Source of the DNA: Lysobacter sp.
GTDB lineage: Bacteria > Pseudomonadota > Gammaproteobacteria > Xanthomonadales > Xanthomonadaceae
DNA: 33,333 bases
Direction: 5' to 3'
Assembly (NCBI GenBank): GCA_026786005.1
Contig: JAJAYW010000073.1
Location: 1-33,333, forward strand
Part shown: piece by piece, positions 4,407-26,659 of the stretch
Layout: each line of letters starts with the position of its first letter
How positions within the stretch are numbered: the first letter of the stretch is position 1
The notes under the pieces: generated by a model
Database searches by the model: none
The model's input: the letters and a program-made list of their open reading frames with translations, nothing else
Told to the model about the DNA's origin: nothing
Made by a program: the position numbers and the translations under genes

Positions 4407-7400
4407 TCACTGCGGGCGGAACAAGTCCGCATGTGTTTCGACGAGGCTTTCCGCACCCGTCTTGCTGGTCTTGCTTGCACCATCCTCCACCAGCCACGCA
4501 AATCGCTCGGCCGGTGCGGCCTGGCCAAACATCAGCCCCTGCATGCCGGTGCAACCCAGTTGCACCAGCGCTTCGTACTGCGCGTCGGTTTCCACGCCCT
4601 TGGCGATGACGCGATAACCCATGGCGTGGCCGATGCCCAGCATCACTTTTGTCACCGCGCGCGCTTGCGGGTCGTCGATGATGACGCGCACGAAGTCGCG
4701 ATCAATCTTCAACGTGTCGAATGCGAAATGCGCGAGCGCGCCGAGACTGGCCTGCCCGCTTCCGAAATCATCGGCCGCGACGCGCACGCCCCGCGCCTTC
4801 AACGCAGCCACCAGCGCCTGCGCGCGCGCGCCTTGCGCGAACAGCTGGGCACCCTTGAACTCGATCTCCAGCCCGCGCGGTTCCAGTCCCGTCTCGAGCA
4901 ACACCGCGTCCACATGCGCGAGCAAGCGCTCCGCATCGAAACGCACCAGTGAGACATTCACTGACACCGGCAGTGTCGTCATCCCCTGCTGCTGCCAGAG
5001 GACGCTTTGGCGACAGGCCTCGCGCAGTACCCATTCGTCGATCTGCACCACGAGACCGGTTTCCTCGGCGACCGGGATGAACTCCTCCGGCAGCGCCACA
5101 ACGCCGTCGAGCTTGCGCCAGCGCACCAGCGCCTCGACACCATCGATCCGCCGCTGCGGCAGTTGCACCTGCGGCTGCCAGGCGAGGAAAAAATCGCCAT
5201 TGGCCAGCCCGATGCGCAGGTCATGCTCGGTGCGCATCCGCTCCTCGGCGCTGGCGCCCATGATGTCGGTGAAGTAGCTGTAGCGGCCGCGGCCGCCCTC
5301 CTTGGCGTGGTACAGCGCGGCGTCGGCCTGCTTGGTCAGCGTGCGGGTATCGCGGCCGTCCTGCGGAAACAGTGCGATGCCGATGCTGGCCGAGATGCTC
5401 AACTCCTGGCCATCGACCTGGATCGGCTCCTCGATCGCGTTGATCAGTTTTTCGGCCACGCGCGCGGCGTCGCGCGGGTCGGCCAGGCGGACCAGCAACA
5501 GCACAAACTCGTCGCCACCCTGCCGGCTGACCGTGTCGTCCTCGCGCACCCCGGCGCGCAGTCGCGATGCGACTTCCTGCAACACGCGGTCGCCGACCGG
5601 GTGGCCGAGTTTGTCGTTGATCGGCTTGAAGTGATCCAGGTCCAGGTACAACAGCGCGCCCTTGTAGCCGCGCTCCTGCTGGGTCAATGCCTGGGTCAGG
5701 CGATCCTGCAGCAACACGCGGTTGGGCAGGCCGGTGAGATGGTCGTGCTGCGCCTGATGGGCCAGCGTTTGCGTCTGCGCTTGCGACTGGGTGACGTCGT
5801 GCAGCAGCAACACCGCGCCACTGACCGCGCCGAAACGGTCGCGGATCGGCGCCGCGGATTCGGCCACGGCCGCGCTTTCGCCATCGCGGCGTTGCAGCAG
5901 CCGGTCGCCTTGCTGGCGGACGACGGCATTGCTGCGGATCGCCTCACTCAGCAACGACGGCACGACGTCGCCACTGGCCGCGTCGACGAAACGCAGCACC
6001 TCATCGAGCGGTTGTCCCACCGCCTCGTCCACGGGCCAGCCACTGATGCGCGTGGCCGCCGGGTTGAACAGCGTGATGCGTTGCTGCAGGTCGCAGGCGA
6101 CCACGGCATCGCCGATCGCATCGAGCGTGACTTCCGCTTGGCGGCGCGAGCTGACCATCAACTGCTCCCACGCCAATCGCGGCCCGAGGTCATGGATCGC
6201 CACCACCGCCTGCACGCTGCGCCCACCCTCCATCATCGGCGCGAGGTGCAGCTCAACCGGGAAGGTGCTGCCATCGGCGCGTTTTGCATGCAGGTCCAGG
6301 CCGCGCACCAGTTTTTGCGGCTGCTGCTGTTCGCGCACCACCAACAAGGCCGCGGCCAACGGGGCGGCCGCGGGTGGCTCGAGCCACGCGGCGAGCGGCT
6401 GACCCAGCAACGCTGCACGCGACATGCCGAACAACACCTCGATCTTGTCATTGAGGCGGACGATCGTCCCTGCATGGTCCAGCACGACGGTCGGGTCGAA
6501 GGCTCCTGCCAGCATCGCCTCCATACTGCGCTCGTGTGCGGATCGCCAGCCGGCGTCCTGCGCCAACAGATGGACGCCGTCGACGGGGCCATCGGCGGCG
6601 AAACGAGGTTCGAAGCGCATATCCAGCTCACGGCCGTCCGGCATCTGCACCTGCCGGCGTTGCGACTGCCCGCTCAGCGTGTGGCGGATGGTGGCGGCCA
6701 TCGCGATGGCGGCGTCGCCATAGATTTCATGCAAGGAATGACCCATCACCTCCGCTTCGTCCTTGCCCAGCCACTGCAGGTAACCACGGTTGGCGAACTG
6801 ATGGCGCATGTCCGGGCCCAGCGTCGCCACCAGCGTCGGACCGCGTTCGGTCACCGCCGCGAGACGATCCTGCGCGACGGCCGAGGTGCGCGTGATGCGG
6901 TCGCGTTGCGTGGCCAGGATGGCGATGGCCAGCGCGGCAATGAGTGCGGCGGCGGCCGGCAAGGCCACGATGTCCGGCGCCACGTCATTGGCTGCGGCCG
7001 ATGCGCCGAAGGCGGCGATCGCAACACCGGTCGCAAGCGCCAACCATGCCGTGGCCCTTGTCCCGATGCGGGCCGCGACTGCGACCAGCGGCAACACACC
7101 CAGCAGCATCATGTCGGGGCGCGACCACAACATGGCTGGCACAGGCAGCCACGCCAGCACGGCCAGGAACAGACGCTGGCGGCGGTCCCCGGGCAAATCG
7201 AATGTCTCGGCCCGGTCGTCGACTGCGTTCGGCCAGGTCAACAGCCAGGGCAACATGGCGACCACGCCCACTGCACCAGCCAGCCATGCACGCCACAAGC
7301 CGGCAGCATTGCCCGTCGACCAGTCAAGATCGATCAAGCGGGCCAGCGCGTAGCACAGCGGCACCACTACGAGGCTGAGTGTCATGGTCTGGGCGAAGGG

Positions 7401-7874
7401 CGCCAGCTCGCGCAGGCCGGTCGCTTCACTCTGTTTGCTGCGCAACAGCGCATGTGCGATCAGCCCGCCCACCATCACGCCAGCGGCCTGGATCAAGGCG
7501 GAGACCGGCGCGGCGCCGGCCGCCAGCGCGCCACCGGCAAAGGCCGCGATCGCAACCGCGCCGCTGGCGGCCAACTGCCACCCAGCGGGTTTGCGCAACA
7601 GCAACAGGCCGAGCAGCAGGCTGGCCGACATCGCGGCGATGACATGCCCGAACCACGCGTCGTCCACCCACTGCGCCACAGCGGCCAGCACCAGAATGCC
7701 CGCGCCCATCCCGAGTATCGGCGCGAGTTGCCGCAGTTTTCCGGCGGCAGCCCACGTGGCCGCCATGCGGCTTTCAGGCTGCGTCTGCGTGACTATGCCC
7801 TCGTGTTTCGGTGTCTTCATCGCCTCGCGCCGCGTGCCCACGTCAGCAAGCCTCAGCTTGTCAGTGCTTCCCAA
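4407..7874 (-). CDS. Membrane-bound PAS-GGDEF-EAL protein with MASE1-like N-terminus
   Basis: Multiple TM helices, PAS segments, RxxD I-site and intact GGDEF (REDDTVSRQGGDEF), EAL domain (GVEALVRW...DDFGSG). Start could be 7874 or an internal Met (e.g. MKTPKHEG). Confidence 0.9.
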   Translation of the reverse strand: MGSTDKLRLADVGTRREAMKTPKHEGIVTQTQPESRMAATWAAAGKLRQLAPILGMGAGILVLAAVAQWVDDAWFGHVIAAMSASLLLGLLLLRKPAGWQLAASGAVAIAAFAGGALAAGAAPVSALIQAAGVMVGGLIAHALLRSKQSEATGLRELAPFAQTMTLSLVVVPLCYALARLIDLDWSTGNAAGLWRAWLAGAVGVVAMLPWLLTWPNAVDDRAETFDLPGDRRQRLFLAVLAWLPVPAMLWSRPDMMLLGVLPLVAVAARIGTRATAWLALATGVAIAAFGASAAANDVAPDIVALPAAAALIAALAIAILATQRDRITRTSAVAQDRLAAVTERGPTLVATLGPDMRHQFANRGYLQWLGKDEAEVMGHSLHEIYGDAAIAMAATIRHTLSGQSQRRQVQMPDGRELDMRFEPRFAADGPVDGVHLLAQDAGWRSAHERSMEAMLAGAFDPTVVLDHAGTIVRLNDKIEVLFGMSRAALLGQPLAAWLEPPAAAPLAAALLVVREQQQPQKLVRGLDLHAKRADGSTFPVELHLAPMMEGGRSVQAVVAIHDLGPRLAWEQLMVSSRRQAEVTLDAIGDAVVACDLQQRITLFNPAATRISGWPVDEAVGQPLDEVLRFVDAASGDVVPSLLSEAIRSNAVVRQQGDRLLQRRDGESAAVAESAAPIRDRFGAVSGAVLLLHDVTQSQAQTQTLAHQAQHDHLTGLPNRVLLQDRLTQALTQQERGYKGALLYLDLDHFKPINDKLGHPVGDRVLQEVASRLRAGVREDDTVSRQGGDEFVLLLVRLADPRDAARVAEKLINAIEEPIQVDGQELSISASIGIALFPQDGRDTRTLTKQADAALYHAKEGGRGRYSYFTDIMGASAEERMRTEHDLRIGLANGDFFLAWQPQVQLPQRRIDGVEALVRWRKLDGVVALPEEFIPVAEETGLVVQIDEWVLREACRQSVLWQQQGMTTLPVSVNVSLVRFDAERLLAHVDAVLLETGLEPRGLEIEFKGAQLFAQGARAQALVAALKARGVRVAADDFGSGQASLGALAHFAFDTLKIDRDFVRVIIDDPQARAVTKVMLGIGHAMGYRVIAKGVETDAQYEALVQLGCTGMQGLMFGQAAPAERFAWLVEDGASKTSKTGAESLVETHADLFRPQ

Positions 7875-15383: not shown

Positions 15384-17497
15384 ATGCGCTATCGCGCCTT
15401 CATCAGCTACAGCCACACCGATCGCCTCTGGGCCAGCTGGTTGCATCGAAGCCTGGAAGGCTATCGGGTGCCCTCGCGCCTGCGCGGCACCCGTGGCGAG
15501 TTCGGCCCGCTGCCCGATCGACTGCTGCCGATCTTCCGCGATCGCGAGGACCTGGAAAGCGCCGGCAAGCTCGGGCCCAAGATCGAGGCCGCACTGGCCG
15601 ATTCCGAAGCGCTGATCGTAATCTGTCGCCCGATGCCGCGCGCTCGGCGTGGGTCAACCAGGAAGTGCTCACCTTCAAACGCACCGGCCGGGCCAACCGC
15701 ATCTACTGCCTGATCGTCGCCGGGAAGCCTCATGCCGGCGGCGAGCGCGAGTGTTTCGTGCCTGCGCTTCGCTTCGAACTCGATGCCGATGGCGAACTCG
15801 GAACGCAGGCGGCCGAACCGATCGCCGCCGACGTGCGGCCCGGCACCGACGGCAAGACGCTGGCGCGGCTGAAGCTGCTGTCGGGCCTGCTCGGCGTCAG
15901 CCTGGACAGCTTGCGACAGCGCGAGGCCGCGCGACGACATCGGCGCATGCTCGCCGTCACCGTGCTGTCGCTGCTGGTGATGACGCTGACCAGTTACCTG
16001 GCCATGCAGGCGGTGATCGCGCGGCACGCTGCCGAGCGACGACAGAAGCAGGCGGAGGCGTTGGTCGATTTCATGCTCGGCGATCTCACCGACAAACTGG
16101 CGCAGGTGTCGCGGCTGGACATCCTGGCGGCGGTGAACGACCAGGCGATGGATTATTTCCGGGCGACTCCGCCTTCCGATGTCACCGACGAGTCGCTGGA
16201 ACTGCGCGCCAAGACGCTGGTGAAGATCGGCAATGTCCGGCTCGATCAAGGCCATCTGCCCGAGGCGTTGCAAAGTTACCAGGCCGCCGCCGCGCTCGGG
16301 TCGCAGCTGGCGCGCGCCGCGCCCGCTGATACCGAGCGGCAACTGGCGTACGCCGACGTCCTCGCCTTCATCGGCACCGTCCATTGGTATCAGGGCGAGC
16401 TGGATCAAGCCGAGACCAGCTTCAAGGCGGCGCAGGGCGTACTGTTTCGGACCAGGGAAATCGCACCGGCGAATCTGCGGTTGCTGTTCCAGCTGTCGAC
16501 CATCGACAACAACATCGGCCATGTCCTCGAAGGCCGCGGCCGCCTGGACGAGGCGCTGGTGCAATACCAGAGCATGCTCAAGCTTGCCCAGGAACTGGTG
16601 CGGACCGACCGTGGCAACCGCGACTGGGTCGCGCAGTTGGGGCTGGCGCACAACAACCTCGCCAAGATGGCCTTGCTGCGCGGCGACCTGGTAACCGCCA
16701 TCGCCGAGTATCGCGCCGATGTCGCGATCGAACTCGACCTTGCCAATCGAGATCCCCGCGACAACGCACAGGCGGAAAAACTGCTGCTCGCGCGCGCCGC
16801 GCTCGGACGCACGCTGGCGCTGACCGGCGACGTCGAAACCGGCATTGCGCAGTTGCGACAGGCGCTGGACCAGGCGAAACGCCTTGTGGCCATTGAAGGC
16901 AACAGCACGTCGTTCCAGGAGGATGTCGGGTTGTATTCCACGCAACTGGCCCGCTGGCTGCGCGTGAGTGGCGACACGCAGGCTGCCAGCACGCTTGCCA
17001 GGCCGGGAGTCGACGCCTTCGAGCGGCTGACCAGGCAGGAGTCGGGCAACAGTGGTTGGCGGCGGGCATTGGCGGAAGCCAGGATCGAACAGGCGGAGCA
17101 GGCGCGCGACAGCAGGCGCAGCGACATCGCGCGCGAACAGGCGCAACGGGCGCTCGCAATTCTCGAGCCACAACTGGCCGAACAAGCGGAGGATCGCGCG
17201 ACCGTGCTGGCGACGGTCAGCGCCCGCTTGTTGCTGGCTGCAGCCATCGGCGATGGCGACACCGCGACCACACTGCGCGAGCAGGCCCTGCGGACGACGC
17301 AGGCGCAAACCTCCGGCCGCAACGATCCACGGCTGCTTGCACTGCAGATCGAGGCCTTGCTGGCGCTGGGGCGCCGGCGCGAAGCGCTGCCTCTGCTGCC
17401 CAGGCTCTGGAACACGGGCTACCGCGACCCGGCCTTCGTGGACTTGCTGCGTGAGCACCGCATTCCGATACCTGCGCCGGCTCTCCGCAACAGTTAA
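15384..17497 (+). pseudogene. TIR domain - TM helix - TPR protein, interrupted by an apparent 1-nt deletion near 15626
   Basis: Frame 3 (15384 to ~15626): MRYRAFISYSHTDRLWASWLHRSLEGYRVP...LPIFRDREDLESAGKLGPKIEAALADSEALIVIC. It continues in frame 2 as (S)PDAARSAWVNQEVLTFKR..., TM (LAVTVLSLLVMTLTSYLAMQAV), then TPRs to 17497. Confidence 0.82.
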
Positions 17498-17824: not shown

Positions 17825-17977
17825 ATGAGCGTAGCGCACCCCGATGAGTTCGAAGAAACCATCGACAACCAGGACGCCCAGGGTAGTAATTCAAACCAGC
17901 AGGATGCGAATGCCCCGGCCGAGTCTGCGGGCGGACGCGACAGCGAGGCGAACAACCCGATCATCATCAACAAGTAG
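17825..17977 (+). CDS. Small acidic N/Q-rich protein of unknown function (50 aa)
   Basis: MSVAHPDEFEETIDNQDAQGSNSNQQDANAPAESAGGRDSEANNPIIINK; AGGAG 6 nt upstream of the ATG; followed by a large hairpin at 18005. Confidence 0.5.
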   Translation: MSVAHPDEFEETIDNQDAQGSNSNQQDANAPAESAGGRDSEANNPIIINK

Positions 17978-18260: not shown

Positions 18261-19712
18261 ATGCGTACTTCCCTCATGCAATTGGTCCTGGCCTGCACCC
18301 TCGGGGTGTTGGCCGCTCCCGCCGCGCTCGCGCAGCAATGTCCGCCTGCGGTCCCTGTCCAAGGCGCGCCCCTGGCCGGTCCGTTGCCGGTGTTCCCAGC
18401 CGACAACTGGTGGAACCAGGACATCAGTGCCGCGCCCGTGGATGCGGCCTCGGCCAACTTCATCACCTTCATCGGCGCCACCCGGGGCCTGCATCCCGAC
18501 TTCGGGGGCGAAGAGTCGCCCGGCAGCGTCAATACCTATGGCTTCCCGTACGCGATCGTCAACGGCGCCCAGCCCAAACTGGCCGTCACCTTCAATTACT
18601 GGGACGAGAGCGACGGCGTCAACCAAGCCAACGGGCAAGGCATTCCGTTCTATCCGATTCCTAGCCAGGCCATCACCCAGCCGCACTGGATCGAAGGCGG
18701 CCCGCCCGGCAACATCGACGCACGCAACCAGGGCGATCGCCATCTCTTGATGATTGATTGCACCAACAACCATCTGTATGAACTGGTCGCCGTCTTCTAC
18801 AGCGGCGGCCAATGGATCGCGGGGTCCGGTGCGTTCTTCGACATGAGTCGCAACGACCGCCGCCCCGAGGGCTGGACCTCCGCGGATGCCTCGGGCATGG
18901 CGATCTTTCCCGGACTCGTCCGCTATGACGAAGCCGCCAACACGGCGGTCGCCGAGATCCAACACGCCTTCCGGGTCACCGTGCGCGCGACCAATGGCTA
19001 TGTCTACCCGGCCTCGCATGTTGCCGGCTCGAACTCGAGCGCGCTGCCATTGGGTGCGCGACTGCGGCTCAAGACCAGCGTCAATGGCGCCGATCCGGCG
19101 CTGCGCACCAGCGACCCGACCGCGCGCAAGATCTCCCGGGCCATGCAGAAGTACGGCTTGATCGTGGCCGACAACGGCTCGGACATGTACATCTCGGGCA
19201 CCTTCGACACGCGCTGGAACAACGGCGTCCTCAACCCCGCCTTCTCGACCATCAAGGCCAGCGATTTCGAGGTCATCCAGCGCGGCTGGCGGCCATCCAC
19301 GCCACCGCCCCCGGCAGCACTCAATGCGGTCAGCGCCAGCCCCAACCCCGTGGCGGGCGGCGCGTCGTCCACCGGCACGGTCACGCTGACCGCGGCAGCA
19401 CCTGCCGGCGGCGCGCAGGTCGCATTGTCCAGCCCGATTTCGGCATTCGCCGTCCCGGCGAGCGTCACGGTGTCGCAGGGCGCGCAGAGCGCAACCTTCC
19501 CGATCACGACATCCTGGGTGCCAACCACGACCATGGGAACGCTCTCGGCTTCGTACAGCGGGGTGACCAGGACGACCACGTTCACGATCAAGCAGAAGTC
19601 CGGGCGGCCGGCACAGGGATTACCACCGACAACACCGACCCGGCAGATGCCCGGGCGGCCGGCACAGGGTCCGCCACCGACAACACCGACCCGGCCAACG
19701 CGTCCACAGTGA
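18261..19712 (+). CDS. Secreted protein with conserved NWWN...DRHLLMIDC domain of unknown function and a C-terminal Ig-like region; C-terminal tail probably out of frame
   Basis: Signal peptide ...GVLAAPAALAQQ; FPADNWWNQDIS...DRHLLMIDCTNNHLYELVAVF...WTSADASGMAIFPGLVRYDE...YGLIVADNGSDMYISGTFDTRWNN; C-terminal beta-sandwich-like segment, then a 17-aa tandem repeat. Confidence 0.75.
   Translation: MRTSLMQLVLACTLGVLAAPAALAQQCPPAVPVQGAPLAGPLPVFPADNWWNQDISAAPVDAASANFITFIGATRGLHPDFGGEESPGSVNTYGFPYAIVNGAQPKLAVTFNYWDESDGVNQANGQGIPFYPIPSQAITQPHWIEGGPPGNIDARNQGDRHLLMIDCTNNHLYELVAVFYSGGQWIAGSGAFFDMSRNDRRPEGWTSADASGMAIFPGLVRYDEAANTAVAEIQHAFRVTVRATNGYVYPASHVAGSNSSALPLGARLRLKTSVNGADPALRTSDPTARKISRAMQKYGLIVADNGSDMYISGTFDTRWNNGVLNPAFSTIKASDFEVIQRGWRPSTPPPPAALNAVSASPNPVAGGASSTGTVTLTAAAPAGGAQVALSSPISAFAVPASVTVSQGAQSATFPITTSWVPTTTMGTLSASYSGVTRTTTFTIKQKSGRPAQGLPPTTPTRQMPGRPAQGPPPTTPTRPTRPQ
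19601..19702. repeat. Two tandem 51-bp units
   Basis: CGGGCGGCCGGCACAGGGATTACCACCGACAACACCGACCCGGCAGATGCC followed by CGGGCGGCCGGCACAGGGTCCGCCACCGACAACACCGACCCGGCCAACGCG. Confidence 0.9.
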
Positions 19713-19970
19713 CGGCCTGCGCCTTGCACGCATAGCAGCGCGCTGGCAGGCCCGTTGGGTGGGCCCAACAAGCCCGCCCCCTCTCAGCGCCGTCACCAGC
19801 GCCACGATCGGCGATGGCCAGGCGACCGGGACGATCCTCAACAACGACTGATGAAGCCGTAACGACACCTGCCCGCTGAATCGACATCGAGCTCAGACCC
19901 ACAATAAGAATGCGGCAAGGGCAGACTGTCCGCAGGGCCACGTTCCGGCAGTTTGGTGGAGGGTTGCATC

Positions 19971-20994
19971 ATGATCACCTGGGTGATCGCCGCGGCTCTG
20001 GCTCTCCCCGCACCCATTCCCGTTTCCGTCCTCGATGCCGGGGCTCCGCGCCGCGGTTGTCAGCAAGAGCCCTTTGGACAAGCGCCGCCTGGATCTGCTG
20101 GTCGATTTCCTGATCGATGCGAAAGGCCTGGGCATGGAATACCAGTACGACGCCACGTACACGGTCGAACAAGCCTTCCGCGCCCGCAAGGCCAATTGTC
20201 TTTCCTTCACCTTGGTGTTCCTGGCGCTGGCACGCGAAGCCGGGCTGGTCGCGTACGCGCAGGAGATCGAGGAAACGCTGGCGTGGCACCAGAGTGAAAA
20301 CACCATCTACCGCATCAACCACATCAATGCCGGCATACGAGTCGACGGGCGCCGGTTCACGGTGGACGTGGGCGGGGACGCGGCGATCGCACTGCATCAC
20401 CCCAGGCCGGTTTCAGATCAGCGCGCGTTGGCGCATTACTACAACAACCGGGCTGCCGAGCTGATGGCGCAGGGCAAAGTGACGGCGGCCATGCCCTACA
20501 TGCAAACGGCGATCGAACTCGATCCGGTGTATGCCACCACCTGGAGCAATGCGGGTGTCCTGTACCTGCGCAATGGCGACCTGGTAGCGGCGGAACGCGC
20601 TTACGCCAGGGCGCTATCCCTGAATCCCTTCCATGCCGGCGCGCTGTCCAACATGGTGGGGTTGTACAAGCGCACCGGGGAGCGCACGCACGAAGCGGAT
20701 TTCCACCGGCGGTTGGAAAAGGTGCAGCGGAAGGATCCCTTCCATCAGTTCCTGCTGGCGGTGGACTACGAAAAACACGGCGACTACAGGCGCGCCGCAA
20801 GCCATTACCAGCGGGCCATCCGGCTCCATGGCACGGAACACCGTTTCCATTTCGGCCTGGCCCGCGCCTATCTGCAATTAGGCGACACCCGTCGCGCCGG
20901 CCTGGCACTGGCCCGCGCCCATGCACTCAGCGACGACGGCACGCGTGATCTTTACCAAGCGAAGCTCGATCGCCTGCAGCGGGAGTCGCAATAG
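19971..20994 (+). pseudogene. Transglutaminase-like/TPR protein, apparently frameshifted at a GGGG run (20040-20043); alternative intact start at ATG 20035
   Basis: Frame 3 signal peptide MITWVIAAALALPAPIPVSVLDAG, then frame 1 LRAAVVSKSPLDKRRLDLLVDFLIDAKGLGMEYQYDATYTVEQAFRARKANCLSFTLVFLALAREAGL (transglutaminase-like Cys), H (NHINAGI), D (VDVGG), then TPRs. Confidence 0.75.

Positions 20995-24409: not shown

Positions 24410-26659
<2,250 letters not shown>

What the first reader, a model, noticed from the sequence alone, without database searches (positions are those of the whole stretch)
15384..17497. TIR-TM-TPR gene broken exactly at the conserved S-P motif before the putative catalytic Glu
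The TIR N-terminus runs in frame 3 to ...ADSEALIVIC (tgt at 15624-15626), and the rest (PDAARSAWVNQEVLTFKR..., TM helix, TPRs) is in frame 2. Restoring one nucleotide (tgt[t]cg ccc gat) gives an uninterrupted VICSPDAARSAWVNQEV. As sequenced, translation loses the WVNQE Glu expected to matter in TIR NADases, plus the whole TM/TPR sensor. This may be an assembly indel, a real null allele or phase variation. TIR-TPR membrane proteins are candidate immune or signalling NADases, so the intact form merits attention.
Basis: partly seen in the sequence, partly recalled or inferred. Interest (0 to 1): 0.62.

Follow-up and report, generated by a model that had tools for sequence, protein, structure and literature searches.

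The report
Frame-broken bacterial TIR receptor gene
A bacterial immune-type TIR receptor gene is cut in two by a one-base loss seen in no relative examined, and comparing its intact relatives shows that the receptor normally comes with a small partner protein bearing a conserved tail, which may be a new detail of how such receptors work.

Summary
The TIR half (15384-15626, frame 3) and the TM/TPR half (15626-17497, frame 2) meet exactly where more than 30 relatives read through in one frame. A coding-frame HMM, not told about the site, places a frame break at 15620. The break is private to this genome, a draft assembly (231 contigs, 89.5% complete). I found no repeat for phase variation and no in-phase slippery site. 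Sequencing or assembly error and a recent null allele cannot be separated without reads.

The context is more interesting than the break. In all 25 other loci with enough downstream sequence, the TIR-TM-TPR gene is followed by a small ORF with a conserved C-terminal tail ([D/G/N]-P-x-[I/V]-x-N). Background is 13 of 17,343 ORFs. Many loci add a SLOG/SLATT-like membrane protein. One genome has a kinase-TPR gene followed by a DP-EP gene, so the partner seems to follow the TPR part. The window retains only a 50-aa tail peptide (17825-17977). A complete intact cassette sits at contig C201 of the same genome. Best reading: a degraded or mis-sequenced copy of a Thoeris-like modular TIR receptor system.

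The parts
15384..15713 (+). N-terminal TIR piece as sequenced: 81 native residues (to 15626), then 28 out-of-frame residues and TGA
   Evidence: (TIR_2 29 bits)
15618..15632 (+). Frame break (net loss of one base relative to relatives)
   Evidence: contiguity of both pieces in one frame in relatives; HMM frame change at 15620
15626..17497 (+). Rest of the gene in frame 2: end of TIR, hydrophobic TM stretch, TPR array
15662..15664 (+). Codon of the putative catalytic Glu (WVNQE), invariant in 22 aligned relatives, not in the TIR reading frame here
15947..16027 (+). Hydrophobic stretch MLAVTVLSLLVMTLTSYLAMQAVIARH, presumed single transmembrane helix
   Evidence: helix in model of L007 orthologue; no TM predictor run
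16205..17366 (+). TPR region (helical hairpin array)
   Evidence: Pfam TPR hits, model m00dbde7ad9e4 pLDDT mostly above 90 here, Foldseek TPR matches
17825..17977 (+). 50-aa acidic ORF ending NNPIIINK*, the short tail-bearing partner; AGGAG upstream of its ATG

Best explanation
The locus is one copy of a modular receptor cassette of Xanthomonadaceae: a membrane-anchored TIR-TM-TPR protein plus small partner proteins that share a conserved C-terminal tail ([D/G/N]-P-x-[I/V]-x-N), often beside a SLOG/SLATT-like membrane protein. Shown: the architecture, the genetic linkage, and the uniqueness of the frame break. Inferred: the TPR array recognises the partner or its tail, or is held off by it; when released, the TIR domain consumes NAD+ and makes an ADP-ribose-type signal; where the SLOG/SLATT-like protein is present it binds that signal and permeabilises the membrane, in the manner of Thoeris. 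In this window the receptor is disabled as sequenced, because a private one-base loss separates the first 81 residues from the Glu-bearing TIR end, the membrane helix and the TPRs. The loss is either a recent null mutation at a locus that has also lost its larger partner, or an indel in the draft assembly. It is neither programmed frameshifting nor repeat-based phase variation. The genome keeps an intact cassette at contig C201.
For: Relatives carry one open frame across the break. Both window pieces keep family residues and coding composition. The downstream tail ORF is present in 25/25 other evaluable loci, against 13/17,343 background ORFs. SLOG-like genes lie beside the TIR gene in L007, L010, L011, L013, L005, L025, L027 and L030, with weak DUF4231 and YAcAr-SLOG Pfam matches. 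In G023 a kinase-TPR ORF is directly followed by an over-cut-off DP-EP gene, so the partner tracks the TPR part. The Glu is invariant in 22 relatives, and the TIR profile matches plant TIR structures.
Against: No activity, binding or phage-defence data exist. The TPRs would be periplasmic if the N-terminus is inside, while the partners show no obvious signal peptide, so direct TPR-tail contact is not assured. SLOG/SLATT assignment rests on weak profile scores and motif recall. PADLOC finds no defence family apart from a generic weak TPR match. The partner bodies are divergent and may not all be homologous.
Confidence: 0.6

Rival explanations
1. The break is a sequencing or assembly indel; the organism carries an intact gene.
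For: The genome is a draft in 231 contigs, 89.5% complete with 4% contamination. Other conserved genes in it also appear frame-broken, e.g. mutS and, by reading, a TamA-like protein and a LuxR-type regulator, several near contig ends. Only this genome has the break; the gene is otherwise well preserved.
Against: The raw rate of HMM frame events (30 in 1.24 Mb) equals that of a single-contig relative (10 in 0.40 Mb), so the assembly is not indel-rich. There is no homopolymer at the site. The locus has also lost its larger partner, which fits real decay.
Confidence: 0.5
2. A real, recent null allele: the TIR gene is a young pseudogene in a decaying cassette, made dispensable by the intact paralogous cassette at C201.
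For: The window is the only one of 26 evaluable loci without the larger partner gene and also the only one with a broken TIR frame. The complete paralogous cassette is in the same genome. The mutS gene is frame-broken too; if real, that would raise the indel rate.
Against: No further lesion anywhere in the 1.87 kb downstream piece; divergence from orthologues is not raised (55-63% identity against 52-71% among relatives).
Confidence: 0.45
3. Regulated frame break (phase variation or programmed frameshifting) makes a short TIR form and, at low level, the full receptor.
For: The break falls between two long, well-preserved coding pieces, as a regulated site would.
Against: No tandem repeat or homopolymer longer than 3 at the site; the only slippery-type heptamer (15573) is out of phase; all relatives are unbroken.
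Confidence: 0.03
4. The tail ORFs are secreted or modified peptide precursors and the TIR-TPR protein is their processing or export accessory, not an immune receptor.
For: The short acidic peptides look like RiPP-type precursors in size, and the conserved segment is the extreme C-terminus, where some export signals lie.
Against: No maturase or transporter family was found next to the scanned genes; the peptide-modification cyclase family TIGR04510 lies elsewhere in the genome, with no tail ORF in its locus.
Confidence: 0.12

Closest known systems
Thoeris antiphage systems (ThsB TIR + ThsA SIR2-SLOG or TM-macro)
   Same: A TIR protein encoded next to a protein with a SLOG-like signal-binding region; inferred NAD-derived messenger (PMC7272460, PMC11204291)
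   Different: The TIR is membrane-anchored and fused to TPRs; the SLOG-like partner carries SLATT/DUF4231-like helices instead of SIR2 or macro; extra tail-bearing small partner; at the window locus no SLOG gene at all
Predicted TIR-SLATT nucleotide-centric conflict systems (PMC9503650, PMC7159879)
   Same: TIR domains beside a 2TM SLATT protein predicted to be an ADP-ribose-derivative-gated membrane effector
   Different: The passages read in those papers do not describe the TIR-TM-TPR receptor or the conserved C-terminal tail partner
Pfam DP-EP (PF08985)
   Same: The L029 partner matches its C-terminal half weakly (18.7 bits, cut-off 25); a true DP-EP gene sits directly behind a kinase-TPR gene in G023
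   Different: Most partners do not match the model; function of DP-EP unknown to me
Putative peptide modification system cyclase (TIGR04510)
   Same: A signalling domain with TPRs in the same bacterial family; an intact copy lies in this genome (C102)
   Different: Different N-terminal domain; no tail ORF near it
SARM1 and plant TIR NADases
   Same: TIR fold with a conserved W-V-x-x-E type motif (PDB profile matches to L6, RUN1, ROQ1; SARM1 comparison from memory)
   Different: Bacterial, membrane-anchored, TPR-fused; activity untested

Membership tests
TIR domain (Pfam TIR_2, PF13676) | Profile score over the curated cut-off | tested here: met
   29 bits against 28 for the N-terminal piece; the genome-wide scan gave 23.8, the domain being cut by the break
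TIR NADase | Conserved Glu in the WxxxE-type motif | tested here: inconclusive
   Invariant in 22 relatives; in the window present in DNA but out of the TIR frame
TIR NADase | NAD+ cleavage | not testable with these tools
   Needs an enzyme assay
Thoeris | TIR gene adjacent to a SLOG-containing gene | tested here: inconclusive
   SLOG-like gene adjacent in several relatives and at C201, SLOG identity weak (YAcAr 0.013 in one member); no such gene in the window locus
Thoeris | SIR2 or TM-macro effector domain in the partner | tested here: not met
   No SIR2 or macro domain in the scanned neighbours; no PADLOC Thoeris match
SLATT-type membrane effector | SLATT family profile match | tested here: inconclusive
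   DUF4231 matched in 4 of 8 members, best E 9.5e-4, below the curated cut-off where shown; no named SLATT model
DP-EP (PF08985) | Score over 25 bits | tested here: not met
   Best tail partner 18.7 bits; the over-cut-off copy in G023 is next to a kinase-TPR gene
This TIR-TPR family's partner tail | ORF behind the receptor ending P-x-[IV]-x-N within 8 residues of its C-terminus | tested here: met
   Window 17825-17977 ends NNPIIINK*

The most novel reading that the evidence does not exclude
A modular bacterial receptor family in which exchangeable effectors (TIR, kinase) are joined through a membrane helix to a TPR sensor that is governed by a co-encoded small beta-sandwich protein through a conserved C-terminal DPxIxN tail, with the TIR product opening a SLOG/SLATT-like membrane effector: a Thoeris-like system with a self-encoded peptide-tail switch.
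Probability: 0.25. Interest if true: 0.75.

Novelty: new variant of a known kind. Interest (0 to 1): 0.42.

Why it matters
The broken gene alone is ordinary. What it led to is a constant pairing, within the loci examined, of TIR-TPR receptors with small proteins that vary throughout their body but keep the same last residues. I found no description of this pairing in the open-access papers searched. It gives a concrete, testable idea of what the TPR part of such receptors senses, and it suggests that TIR output may be coupled to membrane-permeabilising effectors outside the known Thoeris types.

Tried and rejected
Programmed -1 frameshifting: the only heptamer of the right form (15573) is out of phase and relatives have no break. 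Phase variation: no repeat at the site. Indel-rich assembly: raw frame-event rate same as in a single-contig relative (24 against 25 per Mb), although many events are ordinary gene overlaps and several own-genome ones hit conserved genes. Two-gene organisation in relatives: rejected. Known defence annotation: PADLOC and NCBIfam gave nothing useful. PDB sequence search with one full-length relative: nothing; with the full profile TPR proteins dominate. Link to TIGR04510 peptide-modification cyclase: elsewhere in the genome, no tail ORF nearby. Decayed larger partner between 17498 and 17824: permissive tblastn found only the tail and noise. Foldseek of the beta partner: Ig-like sandwich, no match below E 1e-3.

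Full report
Observation. The window is a whole contig (C73, 33,333 bases) of a draft genome with 231 contigs, 89.5% complete and 4% contaminated. ATG 15384 opens a frame that reads a TIR domain start (MRYRAFISYSHTD...SEALIVIC) to 15626 and then 28 unrelated residues to a TGA at 15711-15713. From 15626 the next frame reads SPDAARSAWVNQEV, a hydrophobic stretch (15947-16027) and TPR repeats to 17497. The Glu codon of WVNQE lies at 15662-15664, outside the TIR frame. The first start codon in the second frame after the break is GTG 15665, directly behind it, so re-initiation would not give a catalytic TIR.

It is not chance. Relatives were found in the genome collection and across the family: 94 of 299 genomes match the C-terminal piece, many of them only through TPR similarity. 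In every relative whose locus shows both halves, the 81-residue and 623-residue pieces are adjacent in one open frame with no gap. A coding-frame HMM that was not told of the site puts a frame change at 15620. Both pieces have coding-like codon-position GC, the downstream piece has no second lesion, and identity to orthologues (55-63%) is within the range among orthologues (52-71%).

Cause of the break. No homopolymer longer than 3 lies within about 30 nt, no tandem repeat covers the site, and the one heptamer of slippery form is out of phase, so phase variation and programmed frameshifting are unlikely. To weigh assembly error I took 1.24 Mb of this genome and 0.40 Mb of a single-contig relative and counted same-strand frame changes by HMM: 30 and 10, i.e. 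24 and 25 per Mb. Many are ordinary gene overlaps. The assembly is therefore not indel-rich by this measure. However, a handful of own-genome events cut conserved genes: mutS, verified with Pfam on both halves, and, by reading only, a TamA-like protein, a LuxR-type regulator, a thioredoxin-like gene and an EamA-like gene near a contig end. Without reads I rate error and real null as about equally likely. In favour of a real null, the window is also the only evaluable locus lacking the larger partner gene described next.

Context. The first ORF behind the receptor was read in 31 loci including the window. In 26 there is enough sequence to judge, and all 26 have an ORF whose extreme C-terminus fits [D/G/N]-P-x-[I/V]-x-N or a close form: CDPMIINRFD, NDPVIRNRPS, CDPVIRNQPTR, LDPRIVNKPSS, CDPMIHNEPRG, GNPIIIND, GGPIIINKKQ. 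In L012 the first partner ends GGGIIINK and only its second fits the pattern exactly. The remaining five loci are cut off, three of them (L011, L031, L043) inside a matching sequence. The same pattern ends 13 of 17,343 ORFs of at least 35 aa elsewhere in the held genome sequence. A stricter tail search over 1.93 Mb in six frames hit only ORFs behind TIR-TPR genes plus one 12-residue fragment. The partners are mostly 110-185 aa and beta-rich; in the subclade nearest the window a second, acidic peptide of about 50-70 aa shares the tail. The window keeps only that peptide (17825-17977, with AGGAG ahead of its ATG). A permissive search found no trace of the larger partner.

Several loci also have a roughly 600-aa gene beside the receptor (upstream in L007, L010, L011, L013; downstream in L005, L025, L027, L030). 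Its N-terminus resembles SLOG proteins and its C-terminal half has SLATT-like helices; this is motif recall supported only weakly by Pfam (DUF4231 in 4 of 8 members, best E 9.5e-4; YAcAr-SLOG in one at 0.013). The same genome holds a complete cassette at contig C201: intact TIR-TPR (830-codon open frame), partner ending DPMIINRFD, and SLOG-like gene.

Which part does the partner go with? In genome G023 the only gene whose TPRs match this protein is an 853-codon frame with a protein kinase domain and no TIR. A DP-EP family gene over the curated cut-off lies at the position expected right behind it. The L029 partner matches the C-terminal half of DP-EP weakly. One case is modest evidence, but it suggests that the partner follows the TPR module and the effector domain can be exchanged.

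Mechanism. Shown: linkage, tail conservation, architecture, invariance of the Glu in 22 relatives, similarity of the TIR profile to plant TIR structures, and a confident TPR array in the model of an orthologue (mean pLDDT 81.8; Foldseek TPR matches). Inferred: TPRs read the partner or its tail, the TIR domain then cleaves NAD+, and its product gates the SLOG/SLATT-like protein. Thoeris works through TIR-made cADPR isomers that activate SIR2-SLOG ThsA effectors (PMC11204291), and SLATT has been predicted to be an ADP-ribose-derivative-regulated membrane effector (PMC9503650). Unexplained: with a single membrane helix and a positively charged N-terminal flank the TPRs would face the periplasm, yet the partners have no obvious signal peptide. 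The beta partner model (pLDDT 73.6) is an Ig-like sandwich without a confident fold match.

Verdict. The conserved partner tail is the more interesting outcome. I did not find it described in the open-access papers searched, but most subscription papers are not held, so novelty is provisional.

Noticed in passing
L088:12689-15342 (G000 contig C15, break near 33879): mutS is split by a frame break, with MutS I-III in one frame and III-V in another. If real, the strain would lack mismatch repair; if not, it marks assembly indels.
   Followed up: partly
window 19971-20994: The TPR/transglutaminase-like gene at 20035 is preceded in another frame by a signal-peptide-like stretch (MITWVIAAALALPAPIPVSVLD); possibly a second frame break in this contig, not flagged by the HMM.
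   Followed up: no
window 19600-19850: A Calx-beta-like protein end (GDGQATGTILNND*) follows the 483-aa ORF 18261-19712, whose own C-terminus is low-complexity; possible frame break or repeat collapse.
   Followed up: no
G000 contig C102 (L169), near 5238-7697: Intact putative peptide modification system cyclase (TIGR04510, 1041 bits).
   Followed up: partly
L007:4116-5227: Three tandem tail-bearing ORFs behind one TIR-TPR gene, ending NPIIINR, DPVIINR and QPVIINR.
   Followed up: partly
G023:C1:1380797-1383534: Kinase-TPR gene followed by a DP-EP family gene: the same TPR-partner pairing with a different effector.
   Followed up: partly
window 24413-26659: 748-aa protein with two Pfam peroxidase stretches, the size of a catalase-peroxidase (KatG).
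   Followed up: no
L128:6968-8703, L161:3646-4334, L115:1082-1478: Further apparent frame breaks in conserved genes (TamA-like, LuxR-type response regulator, thioredoxin-like) in the same assembly.
   Followed up: partly
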